Source of the DNA: Flavobacterium daemonense
GTDB lineage: Bacteria > Bacteroidota > Bacteroidia > Flavobacteriales > Flavobacteriaceae
Reading direction: 5' to 3'
Length of the DNA: 64,000 nucleotides
Assembly (NCBI RefSeq): GCF_007341385.1
Contig: NZ_VJYD01000001.1
Coordinates: forward strand, 310,001 to 374,000
Position 1 is the first letter of the stretch, and the number at the start of each line of letters is the position of its first letter. The position numbers and the translations under genes were made by a program. Under the pieces are notes generated by a model. The model saw only the letters and a program-made list of their open reading frames with translations. It searched no databases and was not told the DNA's origin. Below, piece by piece: positions 28,192 to 57,562 of the stretch.

Positions 28192-28223
28192 TTGCTTTTT
28201 TATGAAATTAACTAGTATATTTG
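28192..28223 (+). promoter_or_regulatory. Promoter of the histidine operon
   Basis: TTG at 28192-28194 and TATATTTG at 28216-28223 are separated by 21 bp, close to the Bacteroidota -33/-7 arrangement. Transcription would begin near 28230, about 30 bp before the leader-peptide ATG. Confidence 0.65.
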
Positions 28224-28258: not shown

Positions 28259-28318
28259 ATGATTTCAATTCAATTACATCATCATCATTTACATTATTGC
28301 TCTCAAGCGATGTGTTAA
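28259..28318 (+). CDS. hisL: Histidine-operon leader peptide (19 residues)
   Basis: The short frame reads MISIQLHHHHLHYCSQAMC and stops at TAA. Five of its 19 codons are CAT (histidine), at 28277-28288 and 28292-28294, a density not expected by chance directly ahead of hisG. A terminator and a competing antiterminator pairing follow, so ribosome stalling at these codons when charged tRNA-His is scarce would relieve attenuation. An in-frame ATG at 28202 exists, but it lies upstream of the -7 box and so probably outside the transcript. Confidence 0.9.
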   Translation: MISIQLHHHHLHYCSQAMC

Positions 28319-28379
28319 TGGTATGCATGTAAATCATCATATTTTAAAACCCGTTTGAGTACATCAAACGGGTTTTTTT
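28302..28379 (+). promoter_or_regulatory. Histidine attenuator (antiterminator/terminator)
   Basis: Terminator: AAACCCGTTTGA (28347-28358) pairs with TCAAACGGGTTT (28364-28375), followed by a T run. Antiterminator: CTCAAGCG at 28302-28309, inside leader codons 15-17, pairs over 8 bp (one G-U) with CGTTTGAG at 28352-28359, which is part of the left terminator arm. A ribosome stalled on the His codons leaves CTCAAGCG free; one that reaches the stop codon covers it. The geometry is that of classical transcription attenuation. Confidence 0.85.
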
Positions 28380-28427
28380 ATACCAATTCTTTGTACTCAA
28401 ACTATTAATCAAACAAACAACTGAAAA

Positions 28428-29285
28428 ATGAGTACTTTAAAAATTGCAATTCAAAAATCTGGTCGCTTAAACGAAGACAGCATTCAAATTCTAAAAGACT
28501 GCGGTATTTCAATCAATAACGGAATTGACCAGTTAAAAGCCGAAGCTTCAAATTTTCCTCTTGAAGTTTTATATCTTCGAAATTCAGATATTCCTCAATA
28601 TCTGATAGATGGAGTAGTAGATTTAGCTATTGTTGGCGATAATCTTTTAGTGGAAAAAGGCAAAGGAATCGAAGTTGTACAGAAGCTAGGTTTCTCAAAA
28701 TGCAAAGTTTCTGTGGCAGTTCCTAAGACTTTTGAATACAATTCGATTCAGGATTTGGCAGGACTTCGTATTGCAACTTCTTATCCAAATACGGTTAATG
28801 AATATTTTAGTAAATTTGGGTTAAAAGTCGATATTCACCAAATTTCTGGATCTGTTGAAATCGCACCAAATATTGGTCTAGCCGATGCAATTGTCGATAT
28901 TGTTTCCAGTGGAAGCACTTTATTCAAAAACAATTTAAAAGAAGTTGAAGTTATTTTGAAAAGTGAGGCAGTTTTGGCTGTTTCTCCAAAAGTTTCTCCA
29001 GAAATTCAAAAACACATTGATACATTAAAATTCAGAATTCAGGCCGTTTTAAGAGCTAGAAATTCGAAATATATTTTGATGAACGTTCCAAATGACAAAA
29101 TTGATGCAGTTGGAAAAATTCTTCCAGTTTTAAGAAGTTTGACAGTATTGCCCTTGGCACAAGAAGGCTGGAGCAGTGTTCACTCGGTAATTGATAAAGA
29201 TACTTTTTGGGATGTAATCGATCAATTAAAAGAAGTTGGCGCCGAAGGAATTTTAGTTTGCCCAATCGAGAAAATGGTTCTTTAG
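28428..29285 (+). CDS. hisG: ATP phosphoribosyltransferase, long form
   Basis: First enzyme of histidine synthesis; it joins ATP and PRPP. At 285 residues it is the long, self-sufficient form: two periplasmic-binding-protein-like catalytic lobes (about 1-205, with LAIVGDNLL and DAIVDIVSSGSTL, the PRPP-binding segment) plus a C-terminal ACT-like domain (about 210-285) that binds histidine for feedback inhibition. No HisZ is needed. It lies 49 bp after the attenuator T run, so the operon is controlled both by attenuation and by enzyme inhibition. Confidence 0.97.
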   Translation: MSTLKIAIQKSGRLNEDSIQILKDCGISINNGIDQLKAEASNFPLEVLYLRNSDIPQYLIDGVVDLAIVGDNLLVEKGKGIEVVQKLGFSKCKVSVAVPKTFEYNSIQDLAGLRIATSYPNTVNEYFSKFGLKVDIHQISGSVEIAPNIGLADAIVDIVSSGSTLFKNNLKEVEVILKSEAVLAVSPKVSPEIQKHIDTLKFRIQAVLRARNSKYILMNVPNDKIDAVGKILPVLRSLTVLPLAQEGWSSVHSVIDKDTFWDVIDQLKEVGAEGILVCPIEKMVL

Positions 29286-29414
29286 GGCTTTCGCCCGCTT
29301 TAGGCAGTAGGCTTTAAGCTTTAGGCTTTTGAAAAGCTTGCTCCTCATGCAAAAAATAAACACAACGTTAATAAAGCCTAAAGCCTACAGCTTAAAGCTT
29401 AAAGCTTAAAAAAA
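29286..29414 (+). repeat. Heptad quasi-palindrome between hisG and hisD
   Basis: Left arm 29307-29329 repeats the word GGCTTTA / AGCTTTA; right arm 29373-29388 is its reverse complement with one word fewer. Three further direct copies of AGCTTAA follow at 29389-29409, ending in an A run just before the hisD ATG. The differing word number in the two arms shows that arms gain or lose whole 7-nt units. Confidence 0.8.
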
Positions 29415-30698
29415 ATGAATATAATAGACAATCCAAAACCAGAAAGCTGGTCAGATATATTAAAAAGACCAACACAAACAATTGATGATATTGAGGTTAC
29501 GGTAAAAGAAATCTTCAAAGAAATTCAGAGAAAAGGAGATGAAGCTGTTGCTAAATATACTTCAATTTTCGACGGAATTTCGTTAGATAATTATGAAGTT
29601 TCTGAAGAAGAAATTCAAAAAGCAGTAAAACTAATTCCGACTGAATTAAAAGAAGCGATTCAGTTGGCAAAAGACAATATTTATAAGTTTCACAACGCTC
29701 AAAAAACGGAGAGAATTGAAATTGAAACTATTGAAGGAGTAAACTGTTGGCAGGAAAAAAGACCAATTCAAAAAATTGGGTTATATATTCCGGGTGGAAC
29801 GGCGCCTTTGTTTTCAACGGTTTTAATGCTTGCTGTTCCTGCTGAAATTGCTGGAAGCAAGGAAATTGTTTTGTGTTCTCCACCAGATAAATTTGGAAAA
29901 ATAAATCCTGCTATTTTGTATGCTGCAAATTTATGTGGTGTGACTAAAATTTTAAAAGTTGGCGGAATTCAGGCGATTGCCGGAATGACCTTTGGTACAC
30001 AATCTATTCCAAAAGTGTATAAGATTTTCGGACCAGGAAATCAATTTGTGACTGTGGCGAAACAGTTGGCGACGCAATTTGGAGTAGCGATCGATATGCC
30101 GGCCGGCCCATCAGAATTGTTGATTGTTGCTGATGATACAGCAGTTCCAGAATTCGTGGCTTCCGATTTATTGTCTCAAGCAGAACACGGAACTGATAGT
30201 CAAGTAATTTTAGTTTCGACTTCCAGAAAATTGATTAGCGAAGTTGAAGAAGAAATTCAGTCGCAGCTTGAAGTGCTTCCGCGAAAAGCAATTGCGGCAA
30301 AAGCGATCGAAAATTCAAAATTGATTTATGTTGAAAATGATCAAATTGCACTTGATTTAATCAATGAATATGGTCCTGAACATTTTATCATTTGTTCTGA
30401 ATATGATGATTTCTATTGTAACGGAATCGTAAATGCAGGTTCTGTTTTTATTGGGAATTATACTCCTGAGAGTGCTGGAGATTATGCTTCGGGTACAAAT
30501 CATACACTTCCAACAAACGGTTATGCGAAAAATTACAGCGGAGTAAATCTTGATAGTTTTATGAAATCAATGACTTTTCAGAAAATTTCAAAAACAGGAA
30601 TTCAAAACATTGGAAGCGCGATTGAAACAATGGCTGAGGCTGAAGGTTTGCAAGCGCATAAAAATGCTGTAACATTGAGATTGAAGAGTTTGGATTAA
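29415..30698 (+). CDS. hisD: Histidinol dehydrogenase
   Basis: A 427-residue zinc enzyme that oxidises L-histidinol to L-histidine in two NAD-dependent steps, the last steps of the pathway. Typical blocks are present: YIPGGTAPLFSTVLMLAVPA, GVTKILKVGGIQAIAGMTFG, KIFGPGNQFVTVAKQ, DMPAGPSELLIVAD, the zinc-site LLSQAEHGTDSQ, and NEYGPEHF with the catalytic Glu-His pair. It is full length. Second gene of the his operon, after a 129-bp repeat-filled gap. Confidence 0.97.
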   Translation: MNIIDNPKPESWSDILKRPTQTIDDIEVTVKEIFKEIQRKGDEAVAKYTSIFDGISLDNYEVSEEEIQKAVKLIPTELKEAIQLAKDNIYKFHNAQKTERIEIETIEGVNCWQEKRPIQKIGLYIPGGTAPLFSTVLMLAVPAEIAGSKEIVLCSPPDKFGKINPAILYAANLCGVTKILKVGGIQAIAGMTFGTQSIPKVYKIFGPGNQFVTVAKQLATQFGVAIDMPAGPSELLIVADDTAVPEFVASDLLSQAEHGTDSQVILVSTSRKLISEVEEEIQSQLEVLPRKAIAAKAIENSKLIYVENDQIALDLINEYGPEHFIICSEYDDFYCNGIVNAGSVFIGNYTPESAGDYASGTNHTLPTNGYAKNYSGVNLDSFMKSMTFQKISKTGIQNIGSAIETMAEAEGLQAHKNAVTLRLKSLD

Positions 30699-30790
30699 GA
30701 AAGAGGCAAGAACAAAGAACAAAGAATACAGTATGATGAGAAGTCTTTTGTCTTTCATCTTGATTCTTTCTTCTCAAAAAAATAAAAGAA
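30699..30790 (+). repeat. Heptad quasi-palindrome between hisD and hisC
   Basis: The left arm (about 30711-30731) repeats AAGAACA-type 7-nt words; the right arm (about 30743-30774) repeats TCTTTCA-type words, the reverse complement. The gap holds nothing else. A single left-type arm recurs at 35436-35470 between hisF and hisIE. Confidence 0.75.
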
Positions 30791-31837
30791 ATGAAATTCG
30801 ATATAAATACAATAACACGTGAAAACGTAAAAAAATTAAAGCCTTATTCGTCTGCGAGAGATGAGTTTGAGGATTTTGATACAGCCGAAATGATTTTTTT
30901 GGATGCCAATGAAAATCCGTATCAAAATGGCGTAAATCGTTATCCAGACCCGCAACAGAATTCGGTTAAAGCGATTTTAGCAAAAAACAATAATACCAAA
31001 CAAAGTCAGATTTTATTAGGAAATGGAAGCGATGAAGTTTTAGATTTACTTTTCAGAGCTTTTTGTGAGCCTAAAAAAGATAATATTATTTCGTTGCCAC
31101 CAACGTACGGAATGTATGGCGTCTTGGCAAATATTAATGCGGTCGAAAACAGAGAAATTCTGCTTTCAAATGATTTTCAGCCACAGGTTGAAAAGATTTT
31201 AGAAGCAGTTGATGAGAATACAAAAATCATCTTTTTATGTTCGCCTAATAATCCTACGGGAAATTCTTTTTCAGATGAAAGTGTAGTGAAATTACTTCAA
31301 AATTTTAAAGGATTAGTAGTAATTGATGAAGCGTACATCGACTTTTCGGAGAAAGAAAGCTGGTTGACAGAAATTGACGAATATCCAAATTTGGTTATCA
31401 CACAAACGCTTTCAAAAGCATATGGTTTGGCCGGAATTCGTTTAGGAATTTGTTATGCTTCTGAAGCTGTTATTTCGGTTTTGAACAAAATCAAACCTCC
31501 TTATAATGTAAACGAACTGACGCAACAAAGAGCAAAAGAACGTTTGAAAGATTCTGAAAAAATTAAACAAGAAATAGCTTCAATTATTGAACAAAGAGAA
31601 GAATTACTTAAAGTATTGCTTGAAGTAAGTTTTGTTGAAAAAGTATATCCAACAGAAGCCAATTTTATTCTGGCGAAAGTGGATGATGCCAATAAAAGAT
31701 ATGATCAATTAATCCAAAAAGGAATTGTAATTCGTAACAGAACGACACAGCCTTTATGTGAAAATTGTCTTCGCTTTACAATTGGAACAAAAGAAGAAAA
31801 CGCTGTTGTAATTAAGGAATTGAAATTATTGAGCTAA
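30791..31837 (+). CDS. hisC: Histidinol-phosphate aminotransferase
   Basis: A 348-residue PLP enzyme of fold type I that transaminates imidazole-acetol phosphate with glutamate. The PLP lysine is Lys209 in TLSKAYGLAG; other family blocks are FLDANENPYQNGVNRYPDPQ at the N-terminus, LCSPNNPTGN and VVIDEAYIDFS. It is full length for the family. It follows hisD in the operon with a 92-bp repeat-containing gap. Confidence 0.97.
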   Translation: MKFDINTITRENVKKLKPYSSARDEFEDFDTAEMIFLDANENPYQNGVNRYPDPQQNSVKAILAKNNNTKQSQILLGNGSDEVLDLLFRAFCEPKKDNIISLPPTYGMYGVLANINAVENREILLSNDFQPQVEKILEAVDENTKIIFLCSPNNPTGNSFSDESVVKLLQNFKGLVVIDEAYIDFSEKESWLTEIDEYPNLVITQTLSKAYGLAGIRLGICYASEAVISVLNKIKPPYNVNELTQQRAKERLKDSEKIKQEIASIIEQREELLKVLLEVSFVEKVYPTEANFILAKVDDANKRYDQLIQKGIVIRNRTTQPLCENCLRFTIGTKEENAVVIKELKLLS

Positions 31838-32008
31838 AAATGTTATTGGCCACAGATTATACAGATTAAAATGATTTTATTCTGTTTGTGTATTTTTTGC
31901 CACGAATTACACAAATTATCACGAATTTAATTAGTGCAAATTAGTGTAATTCGTGGCAAAAAGAAAAATCCATTTAATCTGTGAAATCTGTGGCAAAAAA
32001 AGAAATAT
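31838..32008 (+). repeat. Nested quasi-palindrome between hisC and hisB
   Basis: Outer arms 31849-31873 and 31971-31994 (GCCACAGATT... against its complement) match at about 21 of 24 positions. Inner arms 31899-31927 and 31929-31957 (GCCACGAATTACAC...) match at about 24 of 29 with almost no loop. Both arm pairs begin with GCCAC and are built from ACAGATTA / ACAAATTA-type words. The 171-bp gap contains no gene. Confidence 0.8.
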
Positions 32009-33145
32009 ATGAAAAAAATACTTTTTATCGATCGTGACGGAACAATCGTTTTAGAACCTAAAGATTTGCAATTAGACAGTTTGGATAAATTAGAATTTTA
32101 TCCAAAAGCGTTTCAATATCTGGCTAAAATTGCTAACGAATTAGATTACGAATTAGCAATGGTAACCAATCAAGACGGACTAGGAACGGATAGTTTTCCA
32201 GAAGACACGTTTTGGCCAACGCAAAATTTTATTTTGAAAGCGTTTGAAAACGAAGGAGTTGTTTTTGATGAGATTTTCGTTGATCGAACTTTTCCAGAAG
32301 AAAATGCACCAACGCGCAAACCTAGAACCGGAATGCTTACTAAATATTTGAACAATCCGGAATATGATTTGACTAATTCTTTTGTTTTAGGCGATCGTTT
32401 GACGGATGTCGAATTGGCCAAAAACCTTGGTGCAAAAGCCATTTTCATGAATGATACCGATGGAGCAGGAAGTAATGAAATTTCGTCAAAACGTGAAGAA
32501 TTAGACGAAACAATTGTTTTACAATCAATGGATTGGAAGAAAATTTATGAGTTTTTGAAATTAGAAGCACGTTCGGCTTCAATTACTCGTAAAACCAATG
32601 AAACTGATATTTATATCAACTTAAACCTTGACGGAACAGGAAAAAGCAAAATCGATACCGGAATTGCCTTTTTCGACCATATGTTGGATCAAATTTCGCG
32701 TCACGGTCAAATGGATCTTGAAATCCTTGTAAAAGGCGATTTAGAAGTTGATGAGCATCATACAATCGAAGATACTGCAATTGCTCTTGGAGAAGTTTTC
32801 GCGAAAGCGTTAGGAAATAAACTAGGAATCGAGCGCTACGGATTCTGTTTGCCAATGGACGATTGCTTGGCACAAGCCGCAATTGATTTTGGAGGGAGAA
32901 ACTGGTTGATTTGGGAAACCGAATTCAAACGTGAAATGGTAGGTAAAATGCCAACTGAAATGTTTTATCATTTCTTCAAATCATTCACAGACGGCGCAAA
33001 AGCCAACTTAAATATCAAAGCTGAAGGAATCAACGAACATCATAAAATTGAAGCGATTTTTAAAGCTTTCGCGAAAGCAATAAAAGTAGCCGTAAAAAGA
33101 GATACCGAAAAAATGATTTTGCCTTCAACGAAAGGAATGTTGTAA
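32009..33145 (+). CDS. hisB: Bifunctional histidinol-phosphatase / imidazoleglycerol-phosphate dehydratase
   Basis: A 378-residue fusion. The N-terminal part (about 1-165) is a HAD-type phosphatase with the nucleophile motif DRDGTIV (Asp8, Asp10) and [14 protein letters not shown]; it removes phosphate from histidinol phosphate. The C-terminal part (about 185-378) is the manganese-dependent dehydratase, with [28 protein letters not shown] and [19 protein letters not shown] as metal-binding His motifs. The fusion is like that of enterobacteria. Fourth gene of the operon. Confidence 0.97.
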
Positions 33146-33213
33146 AACGCTGTAAGCTATAAGCAATAGGCAATAAGCCTAAAGCTTACGGCTTAAAGCT
33201 TAAAGCTTTTTTA
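33146..33213 (+). repeat. Heptad array between hisB and hisH
   Basis: The whole 68-bp gap keeps a 7-nt phase: TAAGCTA, TAAGCAA and TAGGCAA words switch to AAAGCTT and ACGGCTT words, the opposite orientation, ending with a T run and the hisH ATG. The word is the one used between hisG and hisD (29286-29414). Confidence 0.75.
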
Positions 33214-33795
33214 ATGAAAATAGTAATTATAAATTACGGAGCAGGAAATATTCAGAGCATTATGTTTGCTATTGAAAGACTGGGTTTTAAGGCCGTTTTG
33301 AGCAATAATCCTGAAGAAATAAAAGCGGCAGATAAGGTGATTTTTCCTGGTGTGGGCGAAGCTAGTTCGGCGATGGCTAAACTTTGCGAAAGTGGTTTGG
33401 ATAGTTTGATTTCGAATTTGAAACAGCCAGTTTTAGGAATTTGCCTCGGAATGCAGTTGATGTGCAATAAAACTGAAGAAGGAAATACAGAAGGTTTAGG
33501 GATTTTTGATGTTGATGTTTTGAAATTTTCAAACAATGTAAAAGTACCGCAAATGGGCTGGAATCAGATTTATGATTTGAAATCGGACTTATTTAAAGGA
33601 ATTTCTGAAAATGAGTTTATGTATCTGGTTCATAGTTTTTATGCGCCAAATTGCGATGAAGCCATTGCTACTACGAATTACGACGTTGAATACGCTTCTG
33701 CTTTGCAAAAAGATAATTTTTACGGAACTCAGTTTCACCCAGAAAAAAGTGGTGATGTTGGAGAGAAAATCCTCGGAAATTTTCTGAAGATGTAA
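33214..33795 (+). CDS. hisH: Imidazole glycerol phosphate synthase, glutamine amidotransferase subunit
   Basis: A 193-residue class I glutaminase that supplies ammonia to HisF. Catalytic Cys77 is in GICLGMQLM; His175 and Glu177 are in QFHPEKS; FPGVGEASSAM forms the oxyanion-side loop. Full length. It is separated from hisA, the next gene, by an 85-bp repeat gap. Confidence 0.97.
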   Translation: MKIVIINYGAGNIQSIMFAIERLGFKAVLSNNPEEIKAADKVIFPGVGEASSAMAKLCESGLDSLISNLKQPVLGICLGMQLMCNKTEEGNTEGLGIFDVDVLKFSNNVKVPQMGWNQIYDLKSDLFKGISENEFMYLVHSFYAPNCDEAIATTNYDVEYASALQKDNFYGTQFHPEKSGDVGEKILGNFLKM

Positions 33796-33880
33796 ATGTT
33801 TCAATATCAATCAAAATATCAAAAATCAATTTCAATTTTTAGAATCTAAAATCTAAAATCCGAAATCTAAAATTAAAAAC
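33796..33880 (+). repeat. Mixed word array between hisH and hisA
   Basis: The first part (33799-33840) uses CAATAT / CAAAAAT words as at 45804-45940; the second part (33841-33873) uses AAAATCT heptads as at 35505-35535. Two word families are thus joined head to tail. No inverted arm is present here. Confidence 0.65.
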
Positions 33881-34606
33881 ATGAGAATAATACCAGCCAT
33901 AGATATCATTGAAGGTAAATGCGTTCGTTTGTCCAAAGGTGATTATGATACCAAAATAATTTACAATGAAAATCCGCTTGAAGTCGCGAAATCATTTGAA
34001 GCACACGGAATTGAATATTTGCATTTAGTCGATTTAGACGGTGCAAAATCAAGCAAAATTGTCAACTATGAGATATTGGAACAAATCGCAACGCAAACGA
34101 GCTTAAAAATTGATTTTGGCGGCGGATTAAAATCAGATGATGATTTAAGAATTGCGTTTGAAAGCGGAGCAAACCAAATTACTGGTGGAAGCATTGCAGT
34201 CAAAAACAGAACTATTTTCGAAAAATGGATTTCAGAATATGGTTCTGATAAAATCATTTTAGGTGCTGATGCAAAAGACGAAAAAATAGCGGTTTCCGGT
34301 TGGTTAGAAGAATCAAATGAAGATTTGATTCCGTTTATTCAAGATTATCAAAATAAAGGAATTCAGTATGTTATCTGTACGGATATTGCAAAAGATGGAA
34401 TGCTTGAAGGTCCAAGTTTTGATTTGTACAGCAAAATTTTAGCGGAAGCAAAAGGTATAAAACTAATAGCTTCTGGTGGAATTTCGACTTTTGATGAATT
34501 ACCAAAACTTGCCGAATTAGGATGCGAAGGAACTATTATCGGTAAAGCAATTTACGAAGGAAGAATTAGTTTGAAACAGTTAGAAAATTATATAATTGGT
34601 TTATAG
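33881..34606 (+). CDS. hisA: ProFAR isomerase (HisA)
   Basis: A 241-residue (beta/alpha)8 barrel that isomerises ProFAR to PRFAR. Catalytic aspartates Asp8 (IPAIDIIEG) and Asp130 (LGADAKD) are present, as are the phosphate-binding loops DFGGGLKS and [11 protein letters not shown]. Full length and adjacent to hisF, its structural relative. Confidence 0.97.
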
Positions 34607-34679
34607 TTGTTAGTTGTCGGTTGATAGTATATCACTTTAACCAACAACAATCAACGAATAACCAACAACCAAACTAAAA
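34607..34679 (+). repeat. Heptad quasi-palindrome between hisA and hisF
   Basis: Left arm 34608-34628 consists of three words TTGTTAG, TTGTCGG, TTGATAG; right arm 34639-34669 consists of AACCAAC / AACAATC words, their reverse complement in type. The array ends in an A run one codon from the hisF start. Confidence 0.78.
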
Positions 34680-35435
34680 ATGTTAGCAAAAAGAATCATA
34701 CCTTGTTTAGATATTAAAAACGGACGAACCGTAAAAGGTGTTAATTTCGTGGACTTACGCGATGCGGGTGATCCAGTCGAATTGGCAGAAATTTATTCGG
34801 CTGAAGGTGCAGACGAACTGGTTTTTTTAGACATTTCGGCAACTGAAGAACGTAGAAAAACATTGGTCAATATGGTGCGAAGTGTTGCAGAAAAAATCAA
34901 TATTCCATTTACAGTTGGTGGTGGAATTTCATCTGTTGAAGACGTTGATATTCTGCTGAATAACGGAGCGGATAAAGTTTCGATAAATTCATCGGCAGTA
35001 AAAAATCCGCAATTGATCAATGATTTGGCACAAAAATTTGGAAGTCAATGCGTTGTTGTCGCAATCGACGCCAAACAAATTGACGGACAATGGATTGTGC
35101 ATTTAGTTGGAGGGAAAGTTCCAACCGAATTAAACTTATTCGATTGGGCTGTGGAAGTGGCAGAACGAGGCGCTGGCGAAATCCTGTTCACATCGATGGA
35201 TAACGACGGAACGAAAAACGGTTTTGCAAACGAGGCTTTGGCAAAACTTTCAGAATCAGTAAATATTCCAATCATTGCTTCTGGAGGAGCGGGAAATATT
35301 CAGCATTTTGTTGATTCTTTTAAAGAAGGAAAAGCAGACGCCGCTTTGGCAGCGAGCGTTTTTCACTTCAAAGAAATAGAGATAAAAGCTTTAAAACAAG
35401 AACTTAGAAGTAACGGAATTGAAGTTAGGCTTTAA
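34680..35435 (+). CDS. hisF: Imidazole glycerol phosphate synthase, cyclase subunit
   Basis: A 251-residue (beta/alpha)8 barrel that uses ammonia from HisH to make imidazole glycerol phosphate and AICAR. Catalytic Asp11 (IPCLDIKNG) and Asp130 (VAIDAKQ) are both present, with the phosphate loops TVGGGISS and ASGGAGN. Full length. Confidence 0.97.
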
Positions 35436-35535
35436 AAAAGAAGCAAGAAACAAAAAGAAAGAGAAGATTCAAAATAAAAAAAAATAATAAGATTTCAGAG
35501 AATCAAAATCTAAAATCTAAAATCTAAAATCTAAA
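35436..35535 (+). repeat. Two word arrays between hisF and hisIE
   Basis: AAGAAGC / AAGAAAC-type heptads (about 35438-35470) are followed by an A-rich stretch and four exact copies of AAAATCT at 35505-35535, the last one running into the hisIE ATG. These are the words of the arrays at 30711 and 33841. Confidence 0.75.
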
Positions 35536-36132
35536 ATGGAAATCGATATAAAAAGTGCGCATGGTTTAATTCCAGCAATAATTCAGGATTCAGAAACAAA
35601 AAATGTTTTGATGTTGGGGTATATGAATGAAGAATCGCTTCAAAAAACAATTGAAACGCAAAAAGTAACTTTCTTTAGCCGATCAAAACAAAGACTTTGG
35701 ACAAAAGGCGAAGAAAGCGGCAATTTTTTAGAACTTGTAGATATTAAAAATGACTGCGATGGCGATACACTTTTGATTCAGGCAAAACCTGCGGGTCCAA
35801 CGTGTCATACGGGTGCAGATACTTGCTGGCAAGAGCCTAATAATTCTAATTACGGTTTTATTTCGCAATTAGAAAACACGATAAAAACACGCAGAGAAAA
35901 TGCTGACTCTGAGAAAAGTTATGTAGCCTCTTTATTCGAAAAAGGAATCAATAAAATTGCTCAAAAAGTTGGAGAAGAAGCTGTAGAAGTTGTTATTGAA
36001 GCAAAAGACAGTAATGATGACTTATTTTTAAGCGAAAGCGCCGATTTATTATTTCATTATTTGATTCTATTGCAGGCAAAAGGATATCAGTTAAATGATG
36101 TCGTTGACGTTTTAAAGAAACGTCAGAAATAA
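35536..36132 (+). CDS. hisIE: Bifunctional PR-AMP cyclohydrolase / PR-ATP pyrophosphohydrolase
   Basis: A 198-residue fusion for steps two and three of the pathway. The N-terminal HisI part (about 1-105) has FFSRSKQRLWTKGEESGN and the zinc-site DCDGDTLL...GPTCHTGADTCW; the C-terminal HisE part (about 112-198) has KKIAQKVGEEAVEVVIEA-type helices (here NKIAQKVGEEAVEVV) and SADLLFHYLILL. It completes the operon hisGDCBHAF(IE), the same gene order as in enterobacteria. No clear terminator follows. Confidence 0.96.
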   Translation: MEIDIKSAHGLIPAIIQDSETKNVLMLGYMNEESLQKTIETQKVTFFSRSKQRLWTKGEESGNFLELVDIKNDCDGDTLLIQAKPAGPTCHTGADTCWQEPNNSNYGFISQLENTIKTRRENADSEKSYVASLFEKGINKIAQKVGEEAVEVVIEAKDSNDDLFLSESADLLFHYLILLQAKGYQLNDVVDVLKKRQK

Positions 36133-43965: not shown

Positions 43966-44040
43966 ATGCAAATCTCAATTATTATTACTTCTGTCGTTGT
44001 TGTCAATGTGTTTAGCACATCTGCAGCGGGAATGGTATAA
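43966..44040 (+). CDS. ilvL: Branched-chain amino acid leader peptide (24 residues)
   Basis: A 24-codon frame starting MQISIIITSVVVVNVF and ending at TAA. It holds three consecutive Ile codons (43978-43986, plus an ATC at 43972) and four consecutive Val codons (43993-44004), with two more Val later. It has no Leu. This suits control by Ile and Val supply of ilvDBNC, which serves both pathways. A terminator and an alternative pairing follow. It was found by reading the leader region; its length and Ile/Val bias are the evidence. Confidence 0.88.
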   Translation: MQISIIITSVVVVNVFSTSAAGMV

Positions 44041-44094
44041 ATATAATTGAAAAACTATATTACAAACCTTCCAAATACTGGAAGGTTTTTTTTT
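44029..44094 (+). promoter_or_regulatory. Ile/Val attenuator (antiterminator/terminator)
   Basis: Terminator: AAACCTTCCA (44064-44073) pairs with TGGAAGGTTT (44079-44088), followed by a run of T. Antiterminator: GGAATGGT at 44029-44036, within the last leader codons, can pair with ACCTTCC at 44066-44072 over seven pairs with one bulged T. A ribosome stalled on the Ile/Val codons leaves GGAATGGT free, as in classical attenuation. The antiterminator is shorter than the terminator and should be tested. Confidence 0.78.
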
Positions 44095-44123
44095 GAATAA
44101 AATTTAAATAAAATAACACAATA

Positions 44124-57404: not shown

Positions 57405-57562
57405 TACTTTGTTTATCTGTCTAAAAATCAGTAAATAATATGTTTTGGTGTGTTTTATTTCATTAATTTTATAGTGCTTAAAATTTAATGGAATCCAGAT
57501 ACCATTTGAAAAACGGGGCGAAACCGAAAAGCCACACGAGTAGGAATAAATTTGGAATTATT

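What the first reader, a model, noticed from the sequence alone, without database searches (positions are those of the whole stretch)
28259..28379. Histidine operon attenuator with a His-rich leader peptide
A 19-codon frame with five CAT codons (four consecutive) lies between a promoter and hisG. CTCAAGCG inside the last leader codons can pair with CGTTTGAG of the left terminator arm, giving mutually exclusive structures. This is ribosome-stalling attenuation in a Bacteroidota, combined with the same gene order as enterobacterial his operons. The small leader gene is easily missed.
Basis: partly seen in the sequence, partly recalled or inferred. Interest (0 to 1): 0.65.

Follow-up and report, generated by a model that had tools for sequence, protein, structure and literature searches.

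The report
Histidine attenuator with extra RNA switch
A short histidine-rich coding sequence and a folding RNA in front of the histidine genes very probably sense histidine shortage, as in gut bacteria, and here carry an extra conserved RNA segment that may also control translation of the first gene.

Summary
Window 28259-28318 encodes MISIQLHHHHLHYCSQAMC (five CAT codons, four in a row), behind a Bacteroidota-type promoter and before a terminator and hisGDC[NB]HAF[IE]. It is not chance: 196 of 210 hisG upstream regions sampled from the phylum hold an ATG frame of 5-40 codons with three or more His, against 7 of 210 on the reverse strand. Leader-peptide attenuation is the right reading and is partly in print: PMC9723704 reports a structured 5' element upstream of hisG in Flavobacteriaceae and leader-peptide attenuation before amino-acid operons. 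Segment 5 (28392-28402), between the U-tract and hisG, is complementary to the terminator's left arm plus loop. It is strong in 106 of 158 sequences with this arm type, and phylogenetically independent pairs support the pairing 38:7, with 7 ties (shuffled about 20:20). In 63 of the 106 it can also pair with the hisG start region, as in the window's minimum-energy fold; 43 of 106 cannot. I propose, unproven, a combined transcription and translation switch: a new variant of a known kind.

The parts
28192..28223 (+). Bacteroidota-type promoter: TTG (28192) ... TATATTTG (28216-28223); consensus recalled
   Evidence: a TAnnTT[TC]G motif lies within 100 nt upstream of the leader ATG in 108 of 158 flavobacterial-type sequences, shuffled mean 15.0, max 26 of 100 rounds
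28259..28318 (+). leader ORF MISIQLHHHHLHYCSQAMC; His codons 28277-28288 and 28292-28294 (segment 1)
28259..28337 (+). 1:2 hairpin (pause / anti-antiterminator) burying the His codons and segment 2
   Evidence: MFE folds, (-19.4 kcal/mol)
28302..28309 (+). segment 2, CTCAAGCG, antiterminator strand inside the last leader codons
28346..28358 (+). segment 3, left arm of the terminator (AAAACCCGTTTGA)
28359..28363 (+). terminator loop GTACA, complementary to part of segment 5
28364..28379 (+). segment 4, right arm TCAAACGGG and U-tract
28392..28402 (+). segment 5, TGTACTCAAAC, perfect 11-nt complement of 28353-28363; also complementary to the hisG start
28428..28436 (+). hisG start ATGAGTACT; TGAGTAC (28429-28435, segment 6) can pair with GTACTCA of segment 5 (28393-28399)
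28428..36132 (+). his operon: hisG, hisD, hisC, hisNB, hisH, hisA, hisF, hisIE

Best explanation
This is a ribosome-mediated (leader-peptide) attenuator of the his operon. With enough His-tRNA the ribosome runs to the leader stop codon and covers segment 2, so the terminator 3:4 forms and transcription stops before hisG. When His-tRNA is short, the ribosome stalls on the CAT run, segment 2 pairs with segment 3, and RNA polymerase reads into hisG. Shown: the anatomy, its conservation, and evolutionary support for pairing of segment 3 plus loop with segment 5. Inferred: ribosome stalling and the response to histidine. Also inferred, and much less certain (about 0.35): segment 5 adds translational control. 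In read-through RNA that holds the 3:4 hairpin, segment 5 is free to cover the hisG start codon. When segment 3 was first held by segment 2, segment 5 can take segment 3 over, using the unpaired loop bases as a toehold, and then no longer covers the start codon.
For: His-rich frame in 196 of 210 upstream regions against 7 of 210 on the reverse strand. Terminator behind the leader in 183 of 199 with a leader candidate of two or more His. Seg2:seg3 in 126 of 158. 3:5 anchored test, loop bases against the 5 nt next to the arm complement: own 0.737, permuted 0.580, sd 0.019, 0 of 2000 (79 unique rows of 119). 3:5 in 52 independent pairs on a HisG tree: 38 for, 7 against, 7 ties, mean gain 4.9; shuffled downstream regions 20.4:20.5, gain sd 0.39, max 1.06 in 100 rounds. 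Loop pairs in 60 unique rows: 261 of 279 cells paired, shuffled mean 199, max 214, several Watson-Crick types per position. The unconstrained read-through fold has 3:4 plus 5:6; with segment 4 blocked it has 3:5 and no 5:6. Mean probability that seg5 pairs with -12..+15 of hisG: 0.47 native, 0.215 shuffled (n = 106). The full pattern is found, once each, in 52 of 150 same-genus genomes, with no match of the reversed control pattern.
Against: No expression data. Seg2:seg3 covariation is inconclusive (17:9, 32 ties). A control region upstream of the leader also leaned towards own (28:15, 9 ties, p 0.03), though with a gain of 0.7 against 4.9. Seg5 is weak or absent in 52 of 158 flavobacterial-type sequences and in 25 of 25 with another arm type. 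3:5 is never more stable than 3:4 (0 of 99; medians -8.7 and -17.0 kcal/mol), so 3:5 needs kinetic help or a stalled ribosome. 43 of 106 sequences with strong seg5 do not keep 5:6. The predicted effect on the start codon is small: mean unpaired probability at -3..+6 is 0.43 native, 0.54 with seg5 blocked, 0.48 with seg5 shuffled; and in the window's fold with segment 4 blocked the hisG start pairs weakly with bases further inside hisG instead of lying open. The 5:6 pair tests are weak (27:12, 24 ties, on all; 8:5 of 30 among strong seg5; 26:22 when the whole downstream region is used), and the seg5-start match is shared largely by descent.
Confidence: 0.85

Rival explanations
1. Plain transcription attenuator; segment 5 does no work on translation. 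The conserved 3:5 pairing only shapes the 5' region of the read-through mRNA, for example its stability, or keeps segment 3 away from segment 2.
For: 43 of 106 sequences keep 3:5 without 5:6; 3:4 is always more stable than 3:5 (0 of 99); blocking seg5 changes start accessibility only from 0.43 to 0.54 on average.
Against: Segment 5 ends 13-18 nt before hisG in 61 of 106, and its pairing with the start region is well above shuffles in the 63 of 106 that keep it (0.62 against 0.14 for positions 0 to +9).
Confidence: 0.45
2. The terminated leader RNA acts in trans: its terminator loop binds segment 5 of full-length his mRNA.
For: The loop bases exposed in the terminated RNA are those that covary with segment 5. 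An attenuator RNA acting in trans is known for rnTrpL (recalled, no call).
Against: Every his mRNA carries its own segment 3 in cis; where 5:6 exists, binding in trans would uncover the start codon, opposite to the expected logic.
Confidence: 0.1
3. DNA-level inverted repeat (operator) bound by a repressor, formed by 28353-28363 and 28392-28402.
For: A co-evolving inverted repeat would also look covarying.
Against: The distance from terminator to segment 5 varies from 8 to 55 nt (n = 106); G-U pairs occur at several positions; one half-site is the terminator arm itself.
Confidence: 0.04
4. Chance CAT run with a fortuitous terminator; no regulation.
For: None found.
Against: Conserved through the phylum sample (196 of 210 against 7 of 210).
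Confidence: 0.01

Closest known systems
Enterobacterial his attenuator (hisL; Rfam RF00514 His_leader)
   Same: His-codon leader ORF, the same kind of alternative hairpins (recalled for E. coli), position before hisG; best Rfam match here although below threshold, full length, 33.9 bits, E 4.6e-4.
   Different: Below the gathering score of 49. E. coli K-12 shows no segment 5: score 9 against shuffled mean 11.4, 283 of 300 shuffles as high.
Structured 5' element upstream of hisG in Flavobacterium psychrophilum (PMC9723704, section 19 read)
   Same: Most likely the same element: upstream of hisG, conserved in other Flavobacteriaceae genera; the paper sees strong clues for leader-peptide attenuation before amino-acid operons.
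   Different: That section gives no leader sequence, segments, covariation or segment 5. Its supplement could not be read here.
Bacteroid-trp RNA (RF01692)
   Same: Leader element of trp genes in Bacteroidota; one match in this genome, where the sequence reads MKTLMNNTWWWKNLRQTS (my reading). [quoted passage not shown] psychrophilum.
   Different: Trp codons, other stems, no segment 5 (score 10, 336 of 500 shuffles as high).
B. subtilis tlrB (yxjB) leader (PMC6851288, abstract and passages seen)
   Same: Leader-peptide stalling combined with transcription attenuation and translational sequestration in read-through RNA.
   Different: Senses tylosin, not an amino acid; sequesters a Shine-Dalgarno sequence; no overlapping antiterminator was identified there.
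B. subtilis trp leader with TRAP (recalled; only titles in a reference list were seen)
   Same: Transcription attenuation plus refolding of read-through RNA that represses trpE translation.
   Different: Protein sensor instead of a stalled ribosome.

Membership tests
Leader-peptide (ribosome-mediated) transcription attenuator | short ORF with a run of codons for the end product | tested here: met
Leader-peptide (ribosome-mediated) transcription attenuator | intrinsic terminator between leader ORF and first gene | tested here: met
   (183 of 199); the generic scan did not flag it
Leader-peptide (ribosome-mediated) transcription attenuator | antiterminator strand that overlaps the leader end and competes with the terminator | tested here: met
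   126 of 158 with at most 5 of 100 shuffles as good; covariation inconclusive
Leader-peptide (ribosome-mediated) transcription attenuator | expression rises when the amino acid is limiting, dependent on leader codons | not testable with these tools
   needs reporter fusions or RNA-seq
Rfam RF00514 His_leader | score at or above the gathering threshold (49 bits) | tested here: not met
   33.9 bits, E 4.6e-4; no gathering hit in the window; no RF00514 row in 20 loci at E up to 0.5, where L001 (this same locus) was not listed either, so that call's filters limit it
Rfam RF01692 Bacteroid-trp | match to the covariance model at the his locus | tested here: not met
   the one match in the genome is on contig C32, not at the his locus; none in the window at gathering score
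Combined transcription and translation attenuation (tlrB-like) | read-through RNA sequesters the start region of the first gene | tested here: inconclusive
   predicted in the window and in 63 of 106 sequences; 43 of 106 lack it; mean accessibility change is small
Combined transcription and translation attenuation (tlrB-like) | measured effect on translation apart from transcription | not testable with these tools
   needs paired transcriptional and translational fusions

The most novel reading that the evidence does not exclude
In Flavobacteriales the his attenuator is a three-partner switch. The terminator's left arm and loop imitate the hisG start region, and a downstream segment 5 pairs with whichever is free. 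One stalled-ribosome signal would then set both transcription through the terminator and translation of hisG, silencing leaky read-through mRNA and quickly shutting off old mRNA when histidine returns.
Probability: 0.35. Interest if true: 0.62.

Novelty: new variant of a known kind. Interest (0 to 1): 0.45.

Why it matters
A His-rich leader stands before hisG in most of the Bacteroidota regions sampled (196 of 210), although Rfam's His_leader model does not reach threshold on this window; such leader genes are therefore easily left unannotated (inference). The conserved fifth segment is a concrete, testable addition to the textbook attenuator. If it acts on translation, it would join transcription and translation control by one stalled ribosome in a group that makes little use of Shine-Dalgarno sequences (recalled).

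Tried and rejected
Operator reading of the inverted repeat: rejected because spacing varies (8-55 nt) and G-U pairs occur. Segment 5 as a general feature of attenuators in this genome: not supported, the ilv leader in the window and the trp leader lack it (2 of 2 tested); the thr loci showed no Thr-rich leader by a crude scan of three loci and were left there. Loop base 8 against the leader codon: inconclusive (57 of 117 paired, shuffled mean 52.9, 440 of 2000 as high; 9:2 with 5 ties in 16 pairs). Segment 5 in GACxx-loop sequences pairing elsewhere near hisG: no clear excess over shuffles (15 sequences). The first orientation pass misread loci from minus-strand matches; corrected. In one search the anchor sometimes took a second TCAAAC nearer hisG (as in L001), which works against the signal. 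In one search the frame picked is the one with most His and is not always the likely leader (L029, L030).

Literature: ten searches, cap reached; searches returned 0 papers. Passages seen: PMC4833913, PMC2864571, PMC6414381, PMC7366714 (40: short ORFs in B. thetaiotaomicron 5' UTRs reminiscent of leader peptides; no mention of histidine), PMC9723704 (section 19 in 73), PMC8305728 (42: his gene organisation in the superphylum; 'leader' occurs 0 times), PMC2965389 (70: 'bacteroidetes' 0 times; [quoted passage not shown] A 2010 comparative study of attenuation in bacteria is only a partial reference line seen and could not be read; it may already list his leaders in Bacteroidetes.

Full report
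Observation. The 19-codon frame at 28259-28318 reads MISIQLHHHHLHYCSQAMC, with five CAT codons. It is preceded by TTG...TATATTTG (28192-28223), a motif of the Bacteroidota promoter type (recalled consensus). It is followed by a 13-bp hairpin with a U-tract (28346-28379) and by hisG at 28428. NCBIfam names the eight downstream genes hisG, hisD, hisC, bifunctional hisB, hisH, hisA, hisF and hisIE, the gene order of enterobacterial operons (E. coli order beyond hisL-hisG-hisD-hisC is recalled; one search shows those four). An upstream in-frame ATG at 28202 lies before the promoter's -7 element and is not expected in the transcript.

Conservation of the leader. I held 212 loci, one of them the trp leader; 210 gave an oriented hisG upstream region and one (L196) gave no usable match. 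196 of 210 hold an ATG frame of 5-40 codons with three or more His, 154 hold four or more; on the reverse strand of the same regions the counts are 7 and 0. The sample spans the window's genus, family, order, class and phylum, with genus and family over-represented; I fetched only part of the genomes with a hisG match. Two of the 14 regions under three His are L203 and L204, both from 600-kb genomes.

Classical segments. The leader folds at z = -7.56. Energies in the window: 1:2 -19.4, 2:3 -7.1, 3:4 -17.9 kcal/mol. By my rule a terminator was found in 183 of 199 regions with a leader candidate (two or more His); 16 lacked one and 11 had no leader candidate. The rule misses some: L027 has a visible terminator. 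The generic scan did not flag the window's own terminator. For segment 2 at most 5 of 100 shuffles were as good in 126 of 158 sequences with the flavobacterial arm and in 140 of 183 in all. Because 2:3 is nearly invariant, the pair test is not decisive (17:9, 32 ties). The SQA-like end that many leaders share is explained by segment 2 lying in those codons (sequence).

The fifth segment. Between the U-tract and hisG, TGTACTCAAAC (28392-28402) is the exact complement of GTTTGAGTACA (28353-28363), which is part of the left arm plus the loop. Its score is 26 against a shuffled mean of 12.2, 0 of 500. Of 158 flavobacterial-type sequences, 106 have a strong segment 5 (score at least 16 and at most 1 of 40 shuffles), 52 do not; 0 of 25 sequences with another arm type have it. 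35 of the 106 are from the window's genus and 71 from other genera and families.

Is it real pairing? Three tests. (a) Anchored on the arm complement only, the next five bases match the same species' loop: own 0.737, permuted 0.580, sd 0.019, 0 of 2000 (157 with the arm motif, 119 with a complement, 79 unique). (b) On a HisG tree of 171 tips, 52 phylogenetically independent pairs that differ in segment 3 plus loop were compared: 38 fit their own downstream region better than the partner's, 7 worse, 7 tied. With shuffled downstream regions the mean split is 20.4:20.5. A control region upstream of the leader gave 28:15 with 9 ties and a gain of 0.7, against 4.9. (c) Pair types: loop positions 8 to 10 show three or four kinds of Watson-Crick pair, with 261 of 279 loop cells paired against 199 shuffled (the 60 unique rows were chosen for score at least 16, so the level is inflated, but the shuffle uses the same rows). 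Example inside the window's genus: L016 GTACA with TGTAC and L067 GCACA with TGTGC.

The hisG start. The same segment 5 is complementary to the hisG start, TGAGTAC. The unconstrained fold of read-through RNA contains 3:4 together with 5:6. Blocking segment 4 gives 3:5 and removes 5:6, but the start region then pairs weakly with bases further inside hisG. Own segment 5 fits own start better than permuted starts (13.0 against 11.5, sd 0.24, 0 of 500; 75 unique), but relatedness is not removed there. Over 106 sequences the mean probability that segment 5 pairs with -12..+15 of hisG is 0.47, shuffled 0.215, while the mean unpaired probability of the start is 0.43 native, 0.48 shuffled and 0.54 with segment 5 blocked, a small effect. 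63 of 106 keep 5:6 and 43 do not. In independent pairs the evidence is modest: 27:12 with 24 ties on all 63 pairs, 8:5 of 30 for strong segment 5, 8:1 of 26 for the strongest, 26:22 with 15 ties when the whole downstream region is used. Two lineages with ATGAAC starts (L110, L150) carry matching GTTCA or TGTTCA in segment 5; other changed starts are not matched.

Mechanism. Attenuation follows from the anatomy. For segment 5 I propose dual control. In the default state 3:4 and 5:6 are thermodynamically favoured, so transcription mostly stops and leaky mRNA has a covered start. After stalling, 2:3 forms first, and segment 5 can displace segment 2 using free loop bases. 3:5 is never more stable than 3:4 (0 of 99), so that state must be kinetic or held by the stalled ribosome. 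The lineages without 5:6 show that this cannot be the whole story. tlrB in B. subtilis is an experimentally studied combined case with a different signal (PMC6851288, abstract and passages).

Known or new. Attenuation before amino-acid operons, and a structured element before hisG, are already in print for flavobacteria (PMC9723704, section 19 read). Rfam His_leader is the nearest family but its threshold is not met (33.9 of 49 bits). E. coli K-12 shows no segment 5. I found no description of segment 5 in the ten searches listed under Tried and rejected, which cover open-licence papers only, and I could not read the supplement of PMC9723704. Overall: a known kind with a new, well-supported part whose function is open.

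Noticed in passing
window 43966-44123: A second likely leader-peptide attenuator: MQISIIITSVVVVNVFSTSAAGMV (Ile/Val-rich) followed by an ACCTTCC...GGAAGGT terminator, directly before the ilvD-family gene; no segment 5.
   Followed up: partly
L031 (G000:C32:222140-222266, minus strand): Bacteroid-trp match (72.4 bits) whose sequence reads as leader MKTLMNNTWWWKNLRQTS; the gene behind it was not searched.
   Followed up: partly
window 57483-57550: DUF805 RNA (RF03081), 78.7 bits, the only gathering-level Rfam hit in the window.
   Followed up: no
L026: In this relative (another family of the order) the arm, hairpin and segment 5 are visible but no U-tract follows the hairpin; it might work on translation only.
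   Followed up: no
L203, L204: Both regions taken from 600-kb genomes of one genus (2 of 2) have hisG but no His-rich leader: regulation perhaps lost in reduced genomes.
   Followed up: no
window 28304-28315 and the hisL region of L297: CAAGCGATGTGT in the window and CAGGCGATGTGT in the E. coli his leader at a similar place after the His codons. Chance or shared origin is open; most other genera seen have a different peptide end in place of the ATGTGT part.
   Followed up: partly
L150 and L110: HisG start reads ATGAAC and segment 5 matches it, a hint of coevolution of coding start and segment 5.
   Followed up: partly
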